Shown piece after piece: positions 133 through 8,403 of a stretch of DNA of 9,999 nt. Made by a program: the position numbers and the translations under genes. The notes beneath the pieces were generated by a model. It was not told the DNA's origin and searched no databases. It worked only from the letters and a program-made list of their open reading frames with translations. The DNA is from Elusimicrobia bacterium HGW-Elusimicrobia-2 (lineage in GTDB: Bacteria; CG03): positions 1 to 9,999 of the forward strand of contig PHAM01000062.1 in the NCBI GenBank assembly GCA_002841685.1, given 5' to 3'. Position 1 is the first letter of the stretch. Every line of letters starts with the position of its first letter.

Positions 133-161
133 TGAAAGCATGGTTTTGTCTGCGCTTTATT

Positions 162-177
162 GAGGATTAATTCTATG
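162..177 (+). promoter_or_regulatory. ribosome binding site and start of the OmpA-like gene
   Basis: GAGGA (162-166) lies eight bases before the ATG at 175-177. The reading frame is open further upstream to a TTG at 160, but that codon overlaps the ribosome binding site itself. The ATG at 175 also gives a clean signal peptide, so it is the better start. Confidence 0.75.
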
Positions 178-1296
178 AATAAGATTGTTTTTTGCATCAG
201 CGTCATTTTGGCCCTGCCGGTGGCCGCCTCGCGGTCATGGGCGGAAAAAGCTCCTCCCGGATCATCTATAGAGGCGTCACCTTTTATGTTTTCGCCAAAC
301 GGTGACGGGGATCTTGACACAACAGATCTCCATCTGAAATTAAGCGGAGGTTATAAGCTCCGCGCCTGGCAGATATACATCCAGGACACTGCGGGCGAAA
401 CGGTGAGGGAAATGAGCTGGCCCGACGAAACCCCGGCGTCCGTGAAATGGGACGGTAAAGACAGCGAAGGCAAAGATCTTCCCGACGGCCGATACTCGGC
501 TTTCTTTGAGGCCCATTTCAGCAAGAAACTCGTTATCACAAGCTTCGCCCCCGTTATAATAGACCGTGCCGGGCCGATCGTCTCAATTGAAGTCTCTCCT
601 GAGATCATTTCGCCCGACGGTGACGGCAAAGACGACGGGGCCGTCTTCAGCGTCAGCGCGCAGGATCTGACTTTTGTGGAGAGGTGGTCGCTGGAAATTT
701 CCGACGAGAAGGACACGCCCGTCAAACTCTTTGAGGGCAAAGGCGCCGCGCCCGAAAGCATAACATGGGACGGCAAAGACGATTATTACAGCAGGGTCGT
801 GCCCAACGGCGTCTATAACGCGGAGCTGACCGCATCCGACGTACTCAGGAACAAGAGCATACCGGCAAAGGTCAAAATAAGAGTGCATGTGCCGCCGAAA
901 GTCGTGACGAAGGAGATCAAGATACAGGACGACGTGCGCGGATTGAAAGTGAATCTTTCGTCTAACATACTTTTCGGCAGCGGCAAAGCAAAGCTTCAGA
1001 GCTCCGCCAACAAATCCCTGGATGAAGTCGCCGCGCTCGCCAAAGCCTACCCCGCAAACAAGATCAGCATAGAAGGCCACACCGATTCCGTCGGAAGCAA
1101 CGATTATAACAAAAAACTTTCTCTCCAGAGAGCGCAGTCCATCCGCGATTATCTGGTATCCAAAGGCGTGCCCAAAGAAAGATTCATGGTCAGCGGTTAC
1201 GGCGAGGAAAAGCCCATCGCCTCAAACCGCAACCGCGCGGGCCAGATGAAAAACAGGCGTGTCGAAATAATAATCCTCAAATCGGGAAAGGAGTAA
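175..1296 (+). CDS. exported OmpA-family protein with two FlgD-like Ig repeats
   Basis: This 373-residue protein probably ties the outer membrane or periplasm to peptidoglycan. Residues 1-23 look like a signal peptide: Lys3, a hydrophobic core, and an Ala-Ser-Arg-Ser-Trp-Ala end. Two similar Ig-like domains follow (about 32-118 and 138-238). Each opens with a Ser-Pro...Ser-Pro-(Asn/Asp)-Gly-Asp-Gly motif (35-45, 141-151) and carries a Trp-Asp-Gly-Lys-Asp motif (92-96, 198-202) followed by Pro-(Asp/Asn)-Gly-x-Tyr. This pattern is known from FlgD Ig-like and CHU_C-type repeats. The C-terminal OmpA domain (about 258-368) has GHTDSVGSNDYN (301-312), LSLQRAQSIRDYL (315-327) and NRRVEI (360-365). 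The Asp of GHTD and the Arg of NRRVE are the family's diaminopimelate-binding positions. No N-terminal beta barrel or lipobox is visible, so it is probably periplasmic. The PASTA gene follows after seven bases, so the two are probably co-transcribed. Confidence 0.88.
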   Translation: MNKIVFCISVILALPVAASRSWAEKAPPGSSIEASPFMFSPNGDGDLDTTDLHLKLSGGYKLRAWQIYIQDTAGETVREMSWPDETPASVKWDGKDSEGKDLPDGRYSAFFEAHFSKKLVITSFAPVIIDRAGPIVSIEVSPEIISPDGDGKDDGAVFSVSAQDLTFVERWSLEISDEKDTPVKLFEGKGAAPESITWDGKDDYYSRVVPNGVYNAELTASDVLRNKSIPAKVKIRVHVPPKVVTKEIKIQDDVRGLKVNLSSNILFGSGKAKLQSSANKSLDEVAALAKAYPANKISIEGHTDSVGSNDYNKKLSLQRAQSIRDYLVSKGVPKERFMVSGYGEEKPIASNRNRAGQMKNRRVEIIILKSGKE

Positions 1297-1303
1297 AATA
1301 TTT

Positions 1304-2029
1304 ATGAAATTCCACCATTACCTCATTATTATCATCCTCTCTTTTTTGATCTCCTGCGTGTCTTATGTCCTCATGAGTGAAGGCTATGTGAGCATGCCAG
1401 ATGTATTCAGAAAAGCCTCCCCCGTCCCCGACCTGTCGGGTAAAAGCCCGGAATTCGCCGAACTTTTCGCGGCTTCCAAAAATTTTAAACTCAATGTGGC
1501 CGGACAGGAATTCACGGCATCGGGTGAAAAAGGCATGATTTTCAGGCAGAGTCCCGCGGCGGGTTTTCTTTTAAAATCAGGAAAGACAATTGACGCGTGG
1601 ATTTCCGGCGGCTCTTTCAGCATCGCCGTGCCCGACCTGAAAGGCCTTACGCTTGAGGAAGCGAAAGACGCTCTTCAAAAAAGCTCGCTGAATTCAGGCG
1701 CGAGCCAGAAAGAAAGCTCCCCCGACATCGCTGAAAACAAAGTCATAAAGACAATACCCGGCGCCGGGGCATGGTGCGAACGCGGCGCTGAAATAATCCT
1801 CGTGCTGAGCTCCGGAGCCGAACTGACAACGGTTCCCAACCTTAAGGGGAAAACCCTTGATGCGGCAAAAAGTATTCTGAAAGCGAAAAAACTGACGCTG
1901 GGCATGGTGAAAAGAGAAACGGACATCGATCAGCGCTTTGACGTAATTTTAAGGCAGTATCCCAATCCAGGCCAAAGAGTAAAACAGGGAATGGCGATCA
2001 CGGTCGTGCTCAATAGCGAAAGCCGCTGA
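1304..2029 (+). CDS. PASTA-domain protein, lipoprotein or N-anchored, no kinase
   Basis: This 241-residue protein consists of an N-terminal hydrophobic segment (7-23) and three PASTA repeats (about 40-103, 108-171 and 176-238). The repeats show the usual V-P-(D/N)-L-x-G opening, an alternating helix, a Q-x-P-x-x-G or I-P-G-A-G turn and an I-x-(V/L)-x-(V/L) closing strand. The first repeat is the most diverged. PASTA domains in other bacteria bind peptidoglycan fragments or beta-lactams, usually outside a Ser/Thr kinase. No kinase domain is present here. Leu-Ile-Ser-Cys at 15-18 fits a lipobox, but hydrophobic residues follow the Cys, so an uncleaved membrane anchor is also possible. The start is backed by GGAAAGGAG (1285-1293) ten bases upstream. 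It probably works with the OmpA-like protein encoded just before it. Its stop codon directly abuts the stop of the convergent gene. Confidence 0.85.
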   Translation: MKFHHYLIIIILSFLISCVSYVLMSEGYVSMPDVFRKASPVPDLSGKSPEFAELFAASKNFKLNVAGQEFTASGEKGMIFRQSPAAGFLLKSGKTIDAWISGGSFSIAVPDLKGLTLEEAKDALQKSSLNSGASQKESSPDIAENKVIKTIPGAGAWCERGAEIILVLSSGAELTTVPNLKGKTLDAAKSILKAKKLTLGMVKRETDIDQRFDVILRQYPNPGQRVKQGMAITVVLNSESR

Positions 2030-3180: not shown

Positions 3181-4203
3181 TCATTCTTCTGAAGCCTGAA
3201 TTGACGTTGGAACGGTATATTTAACATTTTTGTGATGTCCTATCCTGACAATTATGCCATGCTTGATAAGTGGTTTAAGCACATAATGCGCGCCGGGCAC
3301 GGTTGTTTTAATCGCCAACGCTATATCGCGGATACCCATTATTCCCTTTTCATTGATAACACGCAAAAGTTTCTCCTGTTTCACTGTAACAGCTATAGGC
3401 GGCCCTGCCCCTATTCCTATCGACATCATACGTCCGTAAACACGTTCAAGTGTTTCCAATATAATTTCCGACATAAATTCCAGCCACGCCCCGATTGGAT
3501 AATTGCCCGACTGAACACGCTGAAGATTTTTAATATAAAGACTTCTGTTTTCAAGCAAAATCTCATCAATCGAAAAAATATGTAATGTATCAAACCCTCT
3601 CCTGAACAATTCCCATGACGCCAGCGCTCTTGCGCATCTGCCGTTGCCGTCTCTGAAAGGATGAATATTGACAAACTGAAGGTGCAGCAGAGAAGAAGAA
3701 AAAATAGCGGGGATTTGTTTTGATTTGCTGTTTAACCAGTCCAGCATATCTTTCAATAAACGCGGGACTTTTTTCCAGTCGGGCGCCGAATAAATACCGG
3801 CGGTCACGTCCACTCTTCTATATCTGCCAACCGGGCCGTCATCGACGGCGTCCGACGCTATAACCTTATGAAGATTCATGATGTCTTTTTCAAGTATGGC
3901 TGTTTTTTTTTCTTTTTTGATAATATCCCGTATAGCATTCAGATAATTTTTAGCCATTCTCACTTCTCTGACGGAATAACCTGAAATTTTTTTATTGTCA
4001 AACAATGATTTCACAGCTTCCACCGAAAGCGTGCATCCTTCTATTGCCGTTGAACCATGCGCCGAACGGATGGCGGCGTCCCGCGCCAGCGACAATATCA
4101 GAGGAAGCCGTACCCCTGCCGTTTGTATTTTTGAACGGAGACCGCTGATTTTTTCCAGTAAACCCAATGTTCTATCGTTAATTTTATAATCCGGCTCCCA
4201 CAT
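3181..4203 (-). CDS. Fic-family protein with N-terminal inhibitory motif and C-terminal winged helix
   Basis: Fic enzymes usually transfer AMP from ATP to a Ser, Thr or Tyr of a target protein. This 340-residue protein has the full active-site motif HPFRDGNGRCAR at 181-192, with catalytic His181 and Asp185, Asn187 and Arg189 for phosphate and metal contacts. Upstream, STAIEG (51-56) matches the (S/T)xxxE(G/N) inhibitory helix, so Glu55 should block ATP in cis. That places it in the self-inhibited N-terminal (class II) group, and no separate antitoxin gene is expected. VGRYRR at 125-130 fits the flap region. Residues about 275-335 look like a winged helix, suggesting DNA binding. The start has a strong ribosome binding site, GGGAGG (4209-4214), five bases away. 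AT-rich stretches (hand count 25-33% GC at 3541-3600, 3901-3960 and 3961-4020, against 68% at 4321-4380 in rpe) suggest horizontal acquisition. The target is unknown. Confidence 0.93.
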   Translation of the reverse strand: MWEPDYKINDRTLGLLEKISGLRSKIQTAGVRLPLILSLARDAAIRSAHGSTAIEGCTLSVEAVKSLFDNKKISGYSVREVRMAKNYLNAIRDIIKKEKKTAILEKDIMNLHKVIASDAVDDGPVGRYRRVDVTAGIYSAPDWKKVPRLLKDMLDWLNSKSKQIPAIFSSSLLHLQFVNIHPFRDGNGRCARALASWELFRRGFDTLHIFSIDEILLENRSLYIKNLQRVQSGNYPIGAWLEFMSEIILETLERVYGRMMSIGIGAGPPIAVTVKQEKLLRVINEKGIMGIRDIALAIKTTVPGAHYVLKPLIKHGIIVRIGHHKNVKYTVPTSIQASEE

Positions 4204-4263: not shown

Positions 4264-4279
4264 GCTGAAGATATTCAGC
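4264..4279 (-). terminator. possible weak terminator at the end of rpe
   Basis: A perfect six-base-pair stem with a four-base loop (GCTGAA, 4264-4269; TTCAGC, 4274-4279) overlaps the rpe stop codon. In the direction of transcription it is followed by a pyrimidine-rich but imperfect tract, CCTTTCTT. The stem is short and only moderately GC-rich, so read-through into fic is plausible. Confidence 0.35.
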
Positions 4280-4907
4280 GGAGGGCTTTGAGGCCCGCGA
4301 GCTTTTGGAGGATGTTTCCGGATGAGAGATAGGAGCTGGCCACGATGGCGTCGGCGCCGGCTCTCCTGCAGAGAGCGGCCGTCTCAAGATTGATGCCGCC
4401 GTCTACGCATATCCTGCACTTGAGTTTTTTCGCGTCTATTGTTTTGCGGAGTTTCGCGATCTTTTTCAGGATAGCGGGATCAAATTTCTGGCCTGAAAAA
4501 CCCGGCGCCACGGACATGATAAAGGCGGTTTCTATATGCGGCAGCCACTTCTCTATTTTCTCCGCCGGAGCGGGAGGATTGAGGGCGATGCCTTTCTTAA
4601 CGCCTTTCATTTCTTTTATCAGCGCCATAGGCGAGCGCAGCGCCTCAATGTGGAAGATTATCCTTCCGCAGGATTTCCTGTACCACTTCCACTGCTTTTC
4701 GGGGTTGACGACCATGAGATGCGCCTCAAAGGGCAGTTTCGTTATCTTCCTGAGAGAATCTATGACGGGAGGCCCGAAGGTGAGGTTGGGAACGAAACTC
4801 CCGTCCATCACATCCATGTGGATGAAATCGAGCGACCTTCCGTATTTTTTTATTTCCGCGCCCATTCTGCTGAAATCCGAGGAGAGTATTGATAAGCCCG
4901 TTTCCAT
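4275..4907 (-). CDS. rpe: ribulose-phosphate 3-epimerase
   Basis: Rpe interconverts D-ribulose 5-phosphate and D-xylulose 5-phosphate in the pentose phosphate pathway. The 210-residue TIM-barrel protein is slightly shorter than the usual 215-225. Family motifs are in order: ILSSDFSRM (7-15), the FIHMDVMDGSFVPNLTFGP signature (28-46), EAHLMV (61-66), IALNPPAP (107-114), MSVAPGFSGQKF (131-142), CVDGGI (167-172) and GADAIVASSYL (184-194). The expected metal and catalytic residues are His30, Asp32, His63 and Asp169. One small deviation is Ala134 in a loop that more often reads Val-Asn-Pro-Gly. The start codon shares one base with the stop of the upstream PASTA gene (TGATG), so translation is probably coupled. 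A PASTA gene close upstream of rpe recalls prkC-rsgA-rpe in Firmicutes. Confidence 0.96.
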   Translation of the reverse strand: METGLSILSSDFSRMGAEIKKYGRSLDFIHMDVMDGSFVPNLTFGPPVIDSLRKITKLPFEAHLMVVNPEKQWKWYRKSCGRIIFHIEALRSPMALIKEMKGVKKGIALNPPAPAEKIEKWLPHIETAFIMSVAPGFSGQKFDPAILKKIAKLRKTIDAKKLKCRICVDGGINLETAALCRRAGADAIVASSYLSSGNILQKLAGLKALR

Positions 4908-5875
4908 CAGATATCTTTCCTCGCCGTGGGTATGTCGTCTATGTGAAAAATGGCGTAAGCTTCGCCTATCACTTCGACCTCAAGAGATATTTTATTGCCG
5001 GGCCGCTCCCTCTTCTCATAAACGGTTCTGCGGCCGACGGCATCTTTGACAATGATCTTCACCTCTCTTTCTTTTATGTCCTGCGGCACCTCCCAGAAGA
5101 TCGTGACCGTTCTTTTTACATTTTCCTCGAGGGAAAGCTGGGATATATAAAACTTGATGAGGCAATCGCCTGAGAGCATGTCGCCGGGCGCAGGCTCCTG
5201 CTTTATGATCGTGCCGGGAGAGATGTTGTTGTTTATCACTTCTTCCGTTTCGGCTACCTCAAATCCCATCTCATGCAGATAGGAATCCGCCTCAGCTGAT
5301 GATTTCCCGACGAAATACGGCATGACGAGAAAACCCATAAGAGACGCCGGGCCTTTGCTCATCACAATATCTATCATGGTGCCGGGTTTTACGATTTGGC
5401 CGGGCAGAGGTTCCTGCGTTATGATAAGGTCTATCTGCGCCTCGTCGCTGTAAATACCTGTGACATTCCCGACTGTGAGAACCGCGCGGGTTAAAAGGAT
5501 TTCGGCATCACTCATCCTCTTGCCGCAGATGTCGGGCACATATATGAGATTGCCGCCTTCCGAAAGAGTCAGCCGCACCTTCCTTCCTGCCCTGACCACC
5601 GAGCCCGCCACAGGGTTCTGCCTGACGACCGAACCCGCGGGGATCGTCTCGTCGCTGGCCGAGTCCTTTTCTTTGTAGGCATCCAGGCCCTTGGCCTGCA
5701 GCATATCCATGGCTTCGACGATATTCAGTCCCGTCACGTCGGGGGTCACGACAGCCCTGCTCGTTTTGGTGATGATGCGCATGGCTATGTCAAAACCCAC
5801 GCCCACCAGTATGCCGAAAAAAATGGCGTAGCCGGCGTAGCGCGCGTAGCGTATAATTTTTTCTTTACTTATCAT
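4907..5875 (-). CDS. membrane-anchored triple-PASTA protein without a kinase domain
   Basis: This 322-residue protein has a short basic cytoplasmic tail (1-12), one membrane segment (about 15-32) and three PASTA repeats (about 42-107, 111-175 and 183-245). A beta-rich C-terminal domain follows (about 252-315). PASTA modules bind muropeptides in Ser/Thr kinases such as PrkC and in some penicillin-binding proteins. Here neither a kinase nor a transpeptidase domain is attached. The C-terminal part, with a Val-Pro start, repeated K-(I/V)-x-V strands, a Tyr-Glu-x-x-x-x-Pro-Gly-x-x-(I/V) turn and a final Ile-Asp-Asp, resembles from memory the tail of clostridial PASTA kinases. It sits immediately upstream of rpe, as the kinase locus nearly does in Firmicutes. 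It could be the extracellular half of a former kinase, or a scaffold. The start overlaps the trpG stop (ATGA). Confidence 0.85.
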   Translation of the reverse strand: MISKEKIIRYARYAGYAIFFGILVGVGFDIAMRIITKTSRAVVTPDVTGLNIVEAMDMLQAKGLDAYKEKDSASDETIPAGSVVRQNPVAGSVVRAGRKVRLTLSEGGNLIYVPDICGKRMSDAEILLTRAVLTVGNVTGIYSDEAQIDLIITQEPLPGQIVKPGTMIDIVMSKGPASLMGFLVMPYFVGKSSAEADSYLHEMGFEVAETEEVINNNISPGTIIKQEPAPGDMLSGDCLIKFYISQLSLEENVKRTVTIFWEVPQDIKEREVKIIVKDAVGRRTVYEKRERPGNKISLEVEVIGEAYAIFHIDDIPTARKDI

Positions 5876-6441
5876 TTATCCGCGATTCTACAAAAATTCT
5901 CAATGATTTTAAAACCTTCCGGCGTCAGAATTGATTCGGGATGGAACTGCACACCGTATATATCCATGCCCTTCACCCTGACACCCATGATCTCATTGTC
6001 TTTCGTGCGAGCGGTTATCTCCAGCGGCGGCAGGGCTTTTTCTATGATGAGCGAATGATATCTTGTCGCGGTAAAAGGATTTTTGACGCCGAGAAAGATC
6101 CCTTTTCCGTTGTGTTGTATGAGGGATGTTTTGCCGTGCACTATTTTTCTGGCCCTCACCACCTTCGCGCCGAAGACCCGTCCTATCGCCTGATGTCCCA
6201 GACAGACGCCCAGGATAGGCGTTTTTCCGGCGACGGCTTTGATTATCTCCATGGAGCGCCCCGCCTTATCGGGCGTACCCGGCCCGGGCGATATTACTAT
6301 GCCGTCGGGACGGTAAGATACTATCTCCGAAACAGTGACCTCGTCGTTACGGACGACCTTTATGTCTTTCGTTATCCTGCCGAAATACTGCACGATGTTG
6401 TAAACAAAAGAATCGTAATTGTCTACGAAAAGTATCCTCAC
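5872..6441 (-). CDS. trpG: anthranilate synthase component II, glutamine amidotransferase
   Basis: TrpG releases ammonia from glutamine and passes it to TrpE for anthranilate synthesis. The 189-residue class I amidotransferase has DNYDSFVYNI (8-17), SPGPGTP (51-57), GVCLGHQAIG (78-87) and VQFHPESILT (164-173). The catalytic triad is Cys80, His167 and Glu169. VHGKTS (101-106) and RYHSL (127-131) are typical of the TrpG/PabA group. The start is GTG (6441), with GGAGG four bases upstream inside the end of trpE, and it overlaps the trpE stop by four bases. The family overlaps with PabA, and one subunit can serve both the tryptophan and folate pathways, so a dual role is possible. The downstream overlap with the PASTA gene ties it into the same transcript. 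Confidence 0.94.
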   Translation of the reverse strand: MRILFVDNYDSFVYNIVQYFGRITKDIKVVRNDEVTVSEIVSYRPDGIVISPGPGTPDKAGRSMEIIKAVAGKTPILGVCLGHQAIGRVFGAKVVRARKIVHGKTSLIQHNGKGIFLGVKNPFTATRYHSLIIEKALPPLEITARTKDNEIMGVRVKGMDIYGVQFHPESILTPEGFKIIENFCRIADK

Positions 6442-7898
6442 AGGACCTCCGCCATCTCCACGGCGCGCATCAGCGCCTTCACCTTGTTTTCCGTTTCCCT
6501 GTATTCGCCCAAAGGCGTGGAATCATAAACGATCCCCGCACCCGCCTGCAGTGACACCTCTTTGCCTTTCACAAAAACCGTCCTTATGGTTATGGCGAAA
6601 TCCATATCGCCGTTGAATGAAAAATATCCCACAGCCCCCGCGTAAGGGCCCCTTGAAGAGGCCTCAAGCTCGCTTATTATCTGCATGGCCCGCACCTTCG
6701 GAGCTCCCGATACCGTGCCGGCCGGAAAAGCCGCCTTGAAGAGCGAAAAACTGTCATGGCCCCGGCTGACGGTGCCCTCCACCTCGCTGGTCATGTGCAT
6801 GACATGGGAGAATTTTTCAACCGTCATCAGTTCCTTGACGGAAACGCTGTTGAAGCGGCAGACCCGCCCGAGGTCGTTTCTGGCCAGGTCCACGAGCATT
6901 ATGTGCTCCGCCCTTTCTTTTTCCGACGAGATGAGCTCTTCGACGAATTTTTTGTCTTCGGCGGGCGTCGCCCCCCGGGGCCTTGTGCCGGCAATGGGAC
7001 GCAGAACGGCCCTGGAAGAATCCTTCCTCACCAGTATTTCCGGGGAAGAACCGATCATCTTAAACTCCCCGAACTTGAGATAATACATGTAGGGCGAGGG
7101 ATTCACCATGCGCAGCGCCCTGTAAACGCGGAAGGGGTCAACGGATGAGCGCGCTTTCCATCCGCGGGAGATCACCGTCTGTATGCAGTCACCGCGGGCG
7201 ATGTATTTTTTTGCTTTTCTGACCATGTCCTCAAAACGCTTTTGTGTCATCCCGCTTTTAAAAACCGTCCTGCGGCCTGGTGCCAGGGGTTGACTTTCGA
7301 TACTTATTGTCCCGCGAAGCTTTTTCAGAGTCCCTTTAAGTTTTGCCGCGGCGGCGTCGTACATTTTACGGCCGTCCGCGCCCGATCCGTAGCTCCAGCA
7401 TATTATCCTCATCGTTTTTTTAAGATGGTCTATGACTATTACGATCTCGGGCAGCATGAAGCGGAAATACTCTCCGCCGGTGGAGGCGGGGGCATTGATG
7501 TTTTCCCATTCCCCCGCGATGTCATAGGCGAAATAACCCACAGCTCCTCCTGTAAAAGGAGCGTCACCCTGGAGTTTCGGGAAATTATAACGGCCTATGA
7601 ATTTCTTGAGCTCCCCGAAAGAATCGCCGGTTTTTTTCCTTTTTCCGTTGATCTCAAAATAATCCTTTCCGCCCGAGAGCACAAAAGCCGCTGACGGCGA
7701 AACAAAAGAATATCTCCCCCAGCGAATCCCGCCCTCGGCGCTCTCGAGGAGAAAAGCGTTTTCGCCGGAAGCGAGATGCGCGAACACGGAAACAGGCGTT
7801 TCCATGTCGCAGCACACATCCGTGTAAACACAGCCCAGCGAATAATCTTTCAGGGCTTTTTTGTAAACCCCGAAAGACGGCTCTATTTTATTCAGCAT
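6438..7898 (-). CDS. trpE: anthranilate synthase component I
   Basis: TrpE turns chorismate plus ammonia into anthranilate and pyruvate, the first committed step of tryptophan synthesis. From the ATG at 7898 the protein has 486 residues, normal for the family. The N-terminal region carries FLLESAEGG (49-57), whose LLES is the known tryptophan feedback site, followed by RWGRYSF (59-65). The chorismate-binding domain (about 218-475) includes NPSPYMYYL (266-274), GSSPEILVR (283-291), PIAGTRPRG (301-309), LVDLARNDLGR (335-345), a His-rich HVMHMTSEVEG stretch (365-375) and FPAGTVSGAPKVRAM (391-405). The LLES site favours trpE over pabB. At 240-247 the chain reads QTVISRGW where I would expect something closer to Q-V-V-x-S-Q-R-F, a mild oddity. 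The start lies 11 bases inside the end of lepB, so there is no room for a trp leader or attenuator. Confidence 0.94.
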   Translation of the reverse strand: MLNKIEPSFGVYKKALKDYSLGCVYTDVCCDMETPVSVFAHLASGENAFLLESAEGGIRWGRYSFVSPSAAFVLSGGKDYFEINGKRKKTGDSFGELKKFIGRYNFPKLQGDAPFTGGAVGYFAYDIAGEWENINAPASTGGEYFRFMLPEIVIVIDHLKKTMRIICWSYGSGADGRKMYDAAAAKLKGTLKKLRGTISIESQPLAPGRRTVFKSGMTQKRFEDMVRKAKKYIARGDCIQTVISRGWKARSSVDPFRVYRALRMVNPSPYMYYLKFGEFKMIGSSPEILVRKDSSRAVLRPIAGTRPRGATPAEDKKFVEELISSEKERAEHIMLVDLARNDLGRVCRFNSVSVKELMTVEKFSHVMHMTSEVEGTVSRGHDSFSLFKAAFPAGTVSGAPKVRAMQIISELEASSRGPYAGAVGYFSFNGDMDFAITIRTVFVKGKEVSLQAGAGIVYDSTPLGEYRETENKVKALMRAVEMAEVL

Positions 7899-8403
7899 CT
7901 TTGTTGATCCTTCCCGTGATGTTTTCAACGGGAACAAAATATACGGGGTTTCCGGACTCGTCTTTCCAGTCACGCGAATCGCCCGACCAGTCCCTGTTGT
8001 CGCCCATCACAAAGACATGTCCTTCCGGCACCGTGATCTCAGGGATGTTGTCGCCCTGAAGTATCTCGTTTTCTCTCTTATACACCGCATACGGTTCCGC
8101 GCCGATCTCTTCCCAGTTGAGATAGATTTGTTTGTCGCGGATCTCAATGGCATCGCCGCCTATGGCTATAACACGCTTGATCAAACCCCTCTGACTGTCC
8201 ACGGGAGAACGGAAAACGATTATATCGCCCCTCTCAACGGGGTTAAGAACATAATGGAGCGCGTCGGACCATTCTATGTCATAGATCTCCAGGGTCGGTT
8301 CCATGGAACCGCTGGCCACCTTCACAAAGCCGCCTATATACATGCGGAAAAGATAAGCCCCGCCCAAACCGAGAGCGACGATGAAGAGTAATCTTTTGAT
8401 CAT
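7888..8403 (-). CDS. lepB: signal peptidase I
   Basis: LepB cleaves signal peptides from exported proteins at the outer face of the cytoplasmic membrane. The 171-residue protein has one N-terminal membrane segment (about 5-25). The family boxes follow: ASGSMEPTL (30-38) with nucleophile Ser33, RGDIIVFRSP (58-67), GLIKRVIAIGGD (73-84) with general base Lys76, and GHVFVMGDNRDWSGDSRDW (128-146). The compact form with a single transmembrane anchor is typical of many non-proteobacterial enzymes. After box B the chain reads Ile-Tyr-Asp-Ile-Glu-Trp where other family members usually have Ile-Gly-Asp followed by hydrophobic residues, a small local variation. No strong ribosome binding site is seen upstream, and the start is 15 bases after the preceding stop, so coupled translation is likely. 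Its end overlaps trpE by 11 bases. Confidence 0.95.
   Translation of the reverse strand: MIKRLLFIVALGLGGAYLFRMYIGGFVKVASGSMEPTLEIYDIEWSDALHYVLNPVERGDIIVFRSPVDSQRGLIKRVIAIGGDAIEIRDKQIYLNWEEIGAEPYAVYKRENEILQGDNIPEITVPEGHVFVMGDNRDWSGDSRDWKDESGNPVYFVPVENITGRINKDAE
7896..7914 (-). promoter_or_regulatory. ribosome binding site deciding the trpE start
   Basis: GGAAGGA (7908-7914, minus strand) lies nine bases before the ATG at 7896-7898. The same frame is open 75 bases further into lepB, but that stretch lacks TrpE similarity, and the internal ATG gives the usual family length. Confidence 0.65.

What the first reader, a model, noticed from the sequence alone, without database searches (positions are those of the whole stretch)
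4907..5875. Kinase-less PASTA protein in the position of a PrkC-type kinase beside rpe
The sequence shows a membrane anchor, three PASTA repeats and a beta-rich C-terminal domain, with no kinase domain, fused by overlap to rpe. In Firmicutes the PASTA kinase prkC lies just upstream of rsgA and rpe, and the C-terminal domain here resembles the tail of clostridial PASTA kinases. The inference is that this lineage kept the extracellular muropeptide sensor but lost or relocated the kinase, so the protein may act as a scaffold or pass its signal to a partner.
Basis: partly seen in the sequence, partly recalled or inferred. Interest (0 to 1): 0.6.

Follow-up and report, generated by a model that had tools for sequence, protein, structure and literature searches.

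The report
Kinase-free relative of PrkC beside rpe
The gene encodes the outside half of a well-known bacterial cell-wall-sensing kinase (PrkC) with no kinase attached, and this kinase-free form, usually next to the sugar-metabolism gene rpe, turns out to be far commoner in the genomes sampled than the kinase form that textbooks describe.

Summary
Confirmed: on the minus strand, 4907-5875, a 322-aa protein has a short cytoplasmic tail, one membrane helix, three PASTA repeats and a C-terminal beta domain, with no kinase; its stop codon overlaps the rpe start by one base. The genome is from Elusimicrobia. The C-terminal domain, which Pfam misses, has as its best PDB match the Ig-like C-terminal domain of S. 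aureus PrkC, and the full model best matches that complete ectodomain. The rpe adjacency is not local: in 117 related PASTA proteins from many families, rpe is immediately downstream in 80, commonly after def-fmt-rsmB (the PrkC slot); 105 of the 117 have no kinase. A few genomes carry pseudokinase or decayed-kinase versions in the same slot. PASTA kinases over the NCBIfam cut-off occur in 10 of 290 genomes. The genome's only Hanks kinase lies elsewhere and is outside the PASTA-kinase clade, so 'relocated PrkC' is not supported; 'lost in this lineage' is wrong in timing. Most likely it is a membrane-anchored peptidoglycan-binding scaffold or sensor that works without a fused kinase (inferred). 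Whether the kinase-free form is ancestral or derived is unresolved.

The parts
4907..5875 (-). Kinase-free PASTA protein, 322 aa (the finding)
5765..5866 (-). N-terminal helix (residues 4-37 in the model) holding the single membrane helix; most hydrophobic 19-mer is residues 17-35, AIFFGILVGVGFDIAMRII, with an intramembrane Asp29
5561..5752 (-). PASTA repeat 1 (residues 42-105)
5354..5542 (-). PASTA repeat 2
5141..5326 (-). PASTA repeat 3
4910..5134 (-). C-terminal Ig-like domain (residues 248-322), same fold as residues 214-289 of chain 3py9 (S. aureus PrkC ectodomain)
4275..4907 (-). rpe, ribulose-phosphate 3-epimerase, start overlaps the PASTA stop by one base
5872..6441 (-). trpG-type glutamine amidotransferase, stop overlaps the PASTA start (ATGA)
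6438..7973 (-). trpE-type anthranilate synthase component I (as called it overlaps lepB by 86 bases, so the real start is probably internal)
7888..8403 (-). Signal peptidase I (lepB)

Best explanation
The gene encodes a kinase-free member of the PrkC/PknB ectodomain family: N-terminus in the cytoplasm, one membrane helix, then a rod of three PASTA repeats capped by an Ig-like domain outside the membrane. Shown: architecture, homology to the PrkC ectodomain, absence of a kinase domain, conserved pairing with rpe and (in many genomes) with fmt-rsmB. Inferred: the PASTA rod binds peptidoglycan, muropeptides or lipid II and acts as a membrane-anchored scaffold or sensor that places or regulates cell-wall synthesis or division enzymes, without an obligatory Ser/Thr kinase; the only routes into the cell are the short tail and the membrane helix, i.e. 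contacts with membrane partners. Pairing with rpe probably gives coupled expression with central sugar metabolism; why rpe is unknown.
For: Architecture. Best PDB match of the full model is the entire S. aureus PrkC ectodomain (3py9, E 2.1e-18 over 291 columns); best match of the C-terminal domain alone is the same chain (Foldseek rank 1, E 1.4e-3; the only chain with Z of 8 or more, Z 8.3, rmsd 2.3 over 69 residues). A profile of the C-terminal domain also hits the tails of intact-looking PASTA kinases L125 (E 3.6e-5) and L131 (E 1.2e-10) in a small search set. Gene order: rpe immediately downstream in 80 of 117 surveyed PASTA proteins, with fmt, rsmB, def, rlmN or priA within four genes upstream in many. 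Inside Elusimicrobia the PASTA-rpe pair stays together in three different contexts: trpG, rsmB-fmt-def, and dprA-topA-xerC-x. Kinase not required: no Pkinase match in G051 (one contig, 99% complete) or G037 (99%), which have PASTA-rsgA-rpe, nor in G042 (92%) or G047 (89%). No PP2C_2 phosphatase match in the window's genome. Kinase-independent PASTA roles are known: S. aureus PBP1 PASTA domains bind peptidoglycan and are needed for division (PMC9426605), and PBP2x localisation depends on the StkP extracellular domain (PMC12077195).
Against: I found no binding, localisation or knockout data for any kinase-free member. A review reports that only one of three PASTA domains of PrkC binds muropeptides (PMC3601408), so ligand binding cannot be assumed. 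A Hanks kinase does exist in this genome and its family members, so a non-covalent kinase partner is not excluded here. 22 kinase-free loci lack rpe within two genes downstream.
Confidence: 0.6

Rival explanations
1. Split receptor: the PASTA protein is the sensor subunit of the genome's only Hanks kinase (KIN, 311 aa, one C-terminal membrane helix, no ectodomain); the two helices pair in the membrane and ligand binding switches the kinase.
For: KIN is the only Pkinase in the genome, keeps the catalytic residues VVLK, HQD and DFG and ends in a membrane helix without ectodomain. In G098 (L220) a PASTA protein sits beside a separate kinase-like gene with a C-terminal membrane helix. All Elusimicrobia copies carry an intramembrane Asp/Asn (13 of 13).
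Against: KIN lies on another contig in a phosphoesterase-KIN-TPR/HEAT-dprA-topA-xerC cluster, not near PASTA; it is outside the PASTA-kinase clade; several genomes with the PASTA-rpe locus have no Hanks kinase match; the kinase-like partner in L220 lacks catalytic motifs.
Confidence: 0.15
2. Recent lineage-specific loss: an ancestor of this Elusimicrobia lineage had a PrkC whose kinase domain was deleted, leaving a vestigial ectodomain.
For: Same locus, same ectodomain and same C-terminal domain as PrkC. Decay is seen elsewhere: pseudokinase and remnant forms in L100, L101, L188, L201, L231, L217, L216, L058, L174.
Against: All Elusimicrobia copies found are kinase-free, as are 105 of 117 surveyed proteins; on the PASTA tree the window protein lies among kinase-free rows. 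Conservation of full length and of core residues across the phylum does not look vestigial.
Confidence: 0.08
3. The protein is essentially a structural peptidoglycan tether without sensing or signalling, kept beside rpe only by operon inertia.
For: No cytoplasmic domain and only a short N-terminal tail. A second three-PASTA protein without kinase lies in the same genome next to an OmpA-like protein.
Against: The PASTA-rpe pair persists while all other neighbours change within one phylum, which argues against inertia alone.
Confidence: 0.17

Closest known systems
PrkC / PknB / Stk1 family PASTA Ser/Thr kinases (NCBIfam NF033483), ectodomain
   Same: Single membrane helix, three PASTA repeats, the Ig-like C-terminal domain of S. 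aureus PrkC (3py9), and the fmt-rsmB-...-rpe genomic slot
   Different: No kinase domain, no PP2C_2 partner detected in the genome, rsgA not adjacent (it is on another contig); the cytoplasmic part is only a short tail
PASTA-containing penicillin-binding proteins (S. aureus PBP1, S. pneumoniae PBP2x)
   Same: Short cytoplasmic tail, one membrane helix, extracellular PASTA repeats
   Different: No transpeptidase domain; three PASTA repeats plus an Ig-like cap
YabT-type kinases (C-terminal membrane anchor, no ectodomain), as compared with the genome's kinase KIN
   Same: KIN has the same topology as described for B. subtilis YabT (PMC6333020, abstract)
   Different: Only a topological likeness; homology to YabT in particular was not tested

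Membership tests
PASTA Ser/Thr kinase (NF033483) | N-terminal Hanks-type kinase domain | tested here: not met
   Only model positions 340-563 match, 119 bits against a 450-bit cut-off; Pfam shows PASTA only
PASTA Ser/Thr kinase (NF033483) | Membrane helix followed by extracellular PASTA repeats | tested here: met
PASTA Ser/Thr kinase (NF033483) | Cognate PP2C phosphatase in the genome or beside the gene | tested here: not met
   No PF13672 match in G000; present beside the kinase in the comparison locus L203. Other PP2C-like families were not searched, and the genome is 96% complete
Ectodomain family of PrkC (PASTA plus Ig-like cap) | C-terminal Ig-like domain as in 3py9 | tested here: met
Ectodomain family of PrkC (PASTA plus Ig-like cap) | Location between fmt/rsmB and rpe | tested here: inconclusive
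   rpe is adjacent in the window; fmt-rsmB lie upstream in the class relative G007 and in many other genomes but are replaced by trpEG in this family
PASTA repeat | Pfam PF03793 over its cut-off | tested here: met
   128.2 bits, three stretches; six repeats over cut-off in the genome, three in this protein
Peptidoglycan-binding protein | Binding of muropeptide or lipid II | not testable with these tools
   needs a binding assay

The most novel reading that the evidence does not exclude
The kinase-free PASTA-Ig protein beside rpe is the older and commoner form; the PASTA kinases of Gram-positives arose once, when a Hanks kinase was fused to this existing wall-binding protein at the fmt-rsmB-rpe locus, and several lineages later let that kinase decay to a pseudokinase. 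The primary function of the family would then be kinase-independent.
Probability: 0.35. Interest if true: 0.75.

Novelty: new variant of a known kind. Interest (0 to 1): 0.52.

Why it matters
PASTA kinases are studied as central wall-sensing regulators of Gram-positive bacteria. Here their sensor half, with the same cap domain and the same gene neighbourhood, is found mostly without the kinase in a wide set of genomes, and some relatives carry apparently dead kinases in the same slot. This makes the question of what PASTA proteins do without phosphorylation directly testable, and it points to an unexplained, strongly conserved link between a wall-binding membrane protein and the pentose-phosphate enzyme Rpe.

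Tried and rejected
Sequence search of the PDB with the C-terminal profile gave only chance-level hits and Pfam gave none; only the structure comparison identified it. The kinase-like hit upstream of PASTA in L192 reads as a UbiB/ABC1-like protein, not a split PrkC. Relocation of the PrkC kinase was tested by a kinase tree and not supported. The PASTA tree has 27 of 65 inner branches open and is not rooted, so gain against loss was left open; the AU test did not reject one clade of all kinase-bearing rows (p 0.60 and 0.83), and a third AU test did not finish. Literature searches of the held open-access library found no description of kinase-free PASTA proteins beside rpe; the library lacks most subscription journals, so this is weak evidence of novelty. 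Viral fold library, viral contigs and metagenome contigs were not used.

Full report
What is there. The finding lies on the minus strand. ORF 4907-5875 encodes 322 residues. Pfam recognises three PASTA repeats and nothing else. The NCBIfam model of PASTA kinases aligns only over its last 224 positions, i.e. membrane helix and PASTA part, far under its cut-off. The gene is packed between trpG and rpe with overlapping stop and start codons on both sides. The window is a whole contig of a 1.78-Mb, 96% complete genome. Named relatives at 59-82% identity are mostly labelled Elusimicrobia MAGs.

The C-terminal domain. Sequence tools miss it: no Pfam match and no meaningful PDB sequence match. Predicted alone with 24 aligned sequences it is a confident beta domain (pLDDT 94.3). 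Its best match in the PDB is the extra C-terminal domain of S. aureus PrkC (3py9; Foldseek rank 1; Z 8.3, rmsd 2.3 over 69 residues, the only chain with Z of 8 or more). A review describes that domain as an incomplete Ig-like fold that Pfam did not predict (PMC3601408). The full-length model again has 3py9 as best match, over the complete ectodomain (E 2.1e-18). Sequence identity is about 20%, and the Foldseek E-value of the domain alone is 1.4e-3, so the case rests on agreement of fold, order of domains and gene context.

Gene context. In the closest relatives the order is lepB-trpE-trpG-PASTA-rpe. In the class-level relative G007 it is def-fmt-rsmB-PASTA-rpe; in the other Elusimicrobia families it is dprA-topA-xerC-x-PASTA-rpe. 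So the PASTA-rpe pair travels as a unit while its other neighbours change. A wider set of 117 PASTA proteins, taken by similarity to the window protein and therefore not a random sample of all PASTA proteins, was laid out with home-made profiles. Counts: 105 have no kinase, 6 have a degenerate kinase domain, 3 a short remnant, 3 an intact-looking kinase. rpe is the next gene downstream in 80; of these, 44 overlap or abut and 65 lie within 60 bases. The classic PrkC locus appears in L203: rsmB-rlmN-PP2C-PASTA kinase-rsgA-rpe. In G037 and G051 the kinase-free protein sits directly before rsgA-rpe. PASTA kinases over the curated cut-off were found in 10 of 290 genomes, against 141 of 290 with a PASTA match to the window protein at E 1e-12 (the second number includes some kinase-bearing proteins, and the genomes were chosen by the tool, so these are not frequencies in nature).

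A decay series. Motif inspection of PASTA proteins with a cytoplasmic part shows intact kinases (HRD, DFG: L203, L211, L190), full-length domains without the catalytic Asp and without DFG (L100, L188, L201), one with the Asp but no DFG (L101), more degenerate ones (L231, L217), and cytoplasmic remnants of about 130-230 residues (L216, L058, L174). Of the six degenerate ones, four lie next to rpe and the other two have fmt upstream. L220 has the PASTA protein and a separate, degenerate, membrane-anchored kinase-like gene. Pseudokinase status is read from motifs and was not tested.

Loss, relocation or late fusion. The only Hanks kinase of this genome is KIN on another contig, in a phosphoesterase-KIN-HEAT/TPR cluster that is conserved in relatives. 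It keeps catalytic motifs and ends in a membrane helix without ectodomain. In a kinase-domain tree the PASTA kinases group together (support 95) and KIN falls outside, so KIN is not simply the detached PrkC kinase (quick method, SH-aLRT only). In the tree of PASTA-plus-cap regions, kinase-bearing rows cluster and the Elusimicrobia rows lie among kinase-free ones; one clade of kinase-bearing rows is not rejected. This fits either one early fusion followed by decay in some lineages, or one early loss. The data do not choose, and the tree is weakly resolved.

How it probably works. The protein has no cytoplasmic domain, so it cannot signal like PrkC by itself. Two nearly complete genomes with the PASTA-rsgA-rpe locus have no Hanks kinase match, and two further genomes (92% and 89% complete) show the same with PASTA-rpe or fmt-rsmB-PASTA. 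A general kinase-partner model therefore fails, although it may hold in some lineages. PASTA repeats have kinase-independent roles in division (PMC9426605; PMC12077195). I therefore favour a peptidoglycan-binding membrane scaffold or sensor. A conserved Asp/Asn inside the membrane helix is seen in 13 of 13 Elusimicrobia copies and in 41 of 91 other kinase-free proteins but in none of 12 kinase-bearing ones (Fisher p 0.0004 on non-independent sequences; the pattern was defined after looking at the sequences, so treat it as a lead). It suggests helix-helix contact with a partner. The link to rpe is strongly conserved but unexplained; in B. subtilis rpe neighbours the prpC-prkC-cpgA genes, and CpgA (RsgA) acts in pentose-phosphate metabolite proofreading (PMC6449344), which hints that wall and sugar metabolism are coupled there.

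Verdict. The lineage-loss story does not. The protein is a kinase-free variant of a known family, widespread and, as far as the held literature shows, undescribed as a class.

Noticed in passing
window 1304-2029 (+) with 160-1296 (+): A second kinase-free three-PASTA protein (241 aa, no Ig-like cap) follows an OmpA/FlgD-Ig-like protein; the OmpA-like-PASTA pair is conserved in other Elusimicrobia (L103-L107).
   Followed up: partly
L039 7612-10417 (G000 contig C56): The only Hanks kinase of the genome (HQD instead of HRD, C-terminal membrane helix) lies between a calcineurin-like phosphoesterase and a TPR/HEAT protein, a set conserved in the relatives G002, G005, G006 and G007.
   Followed up: partly
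   Followed up: partly
L220 2826-5052 (G098): PASTA protein and a separate kinase-like protein with C-terminal membrane helix as adjacent genes after fmt-x-rsmB-rlmN.
   Followed up: partly
window residue Asp29 of 4907-5875 (-), and L152, L165, L172, L088 and others: Intramembrane motif of the type F-D/N-x-I/L/V-(x)-M just before the first PASTA repeat, frequent in kinase-free PASTA proteins and absent from the 12 kinase-bearing ones examined.
   Followed up: partly
window 3181-4203 (-): Fic-domain protein with a winged-helix-like C-terminus, downstream of rpe; not recognised at this place in most relatives.
   Followed up: no
L182 and L193: Two genomes carry two kinase-free PASTA genes in tandem between rsmB and rpe.
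   Followed up: no
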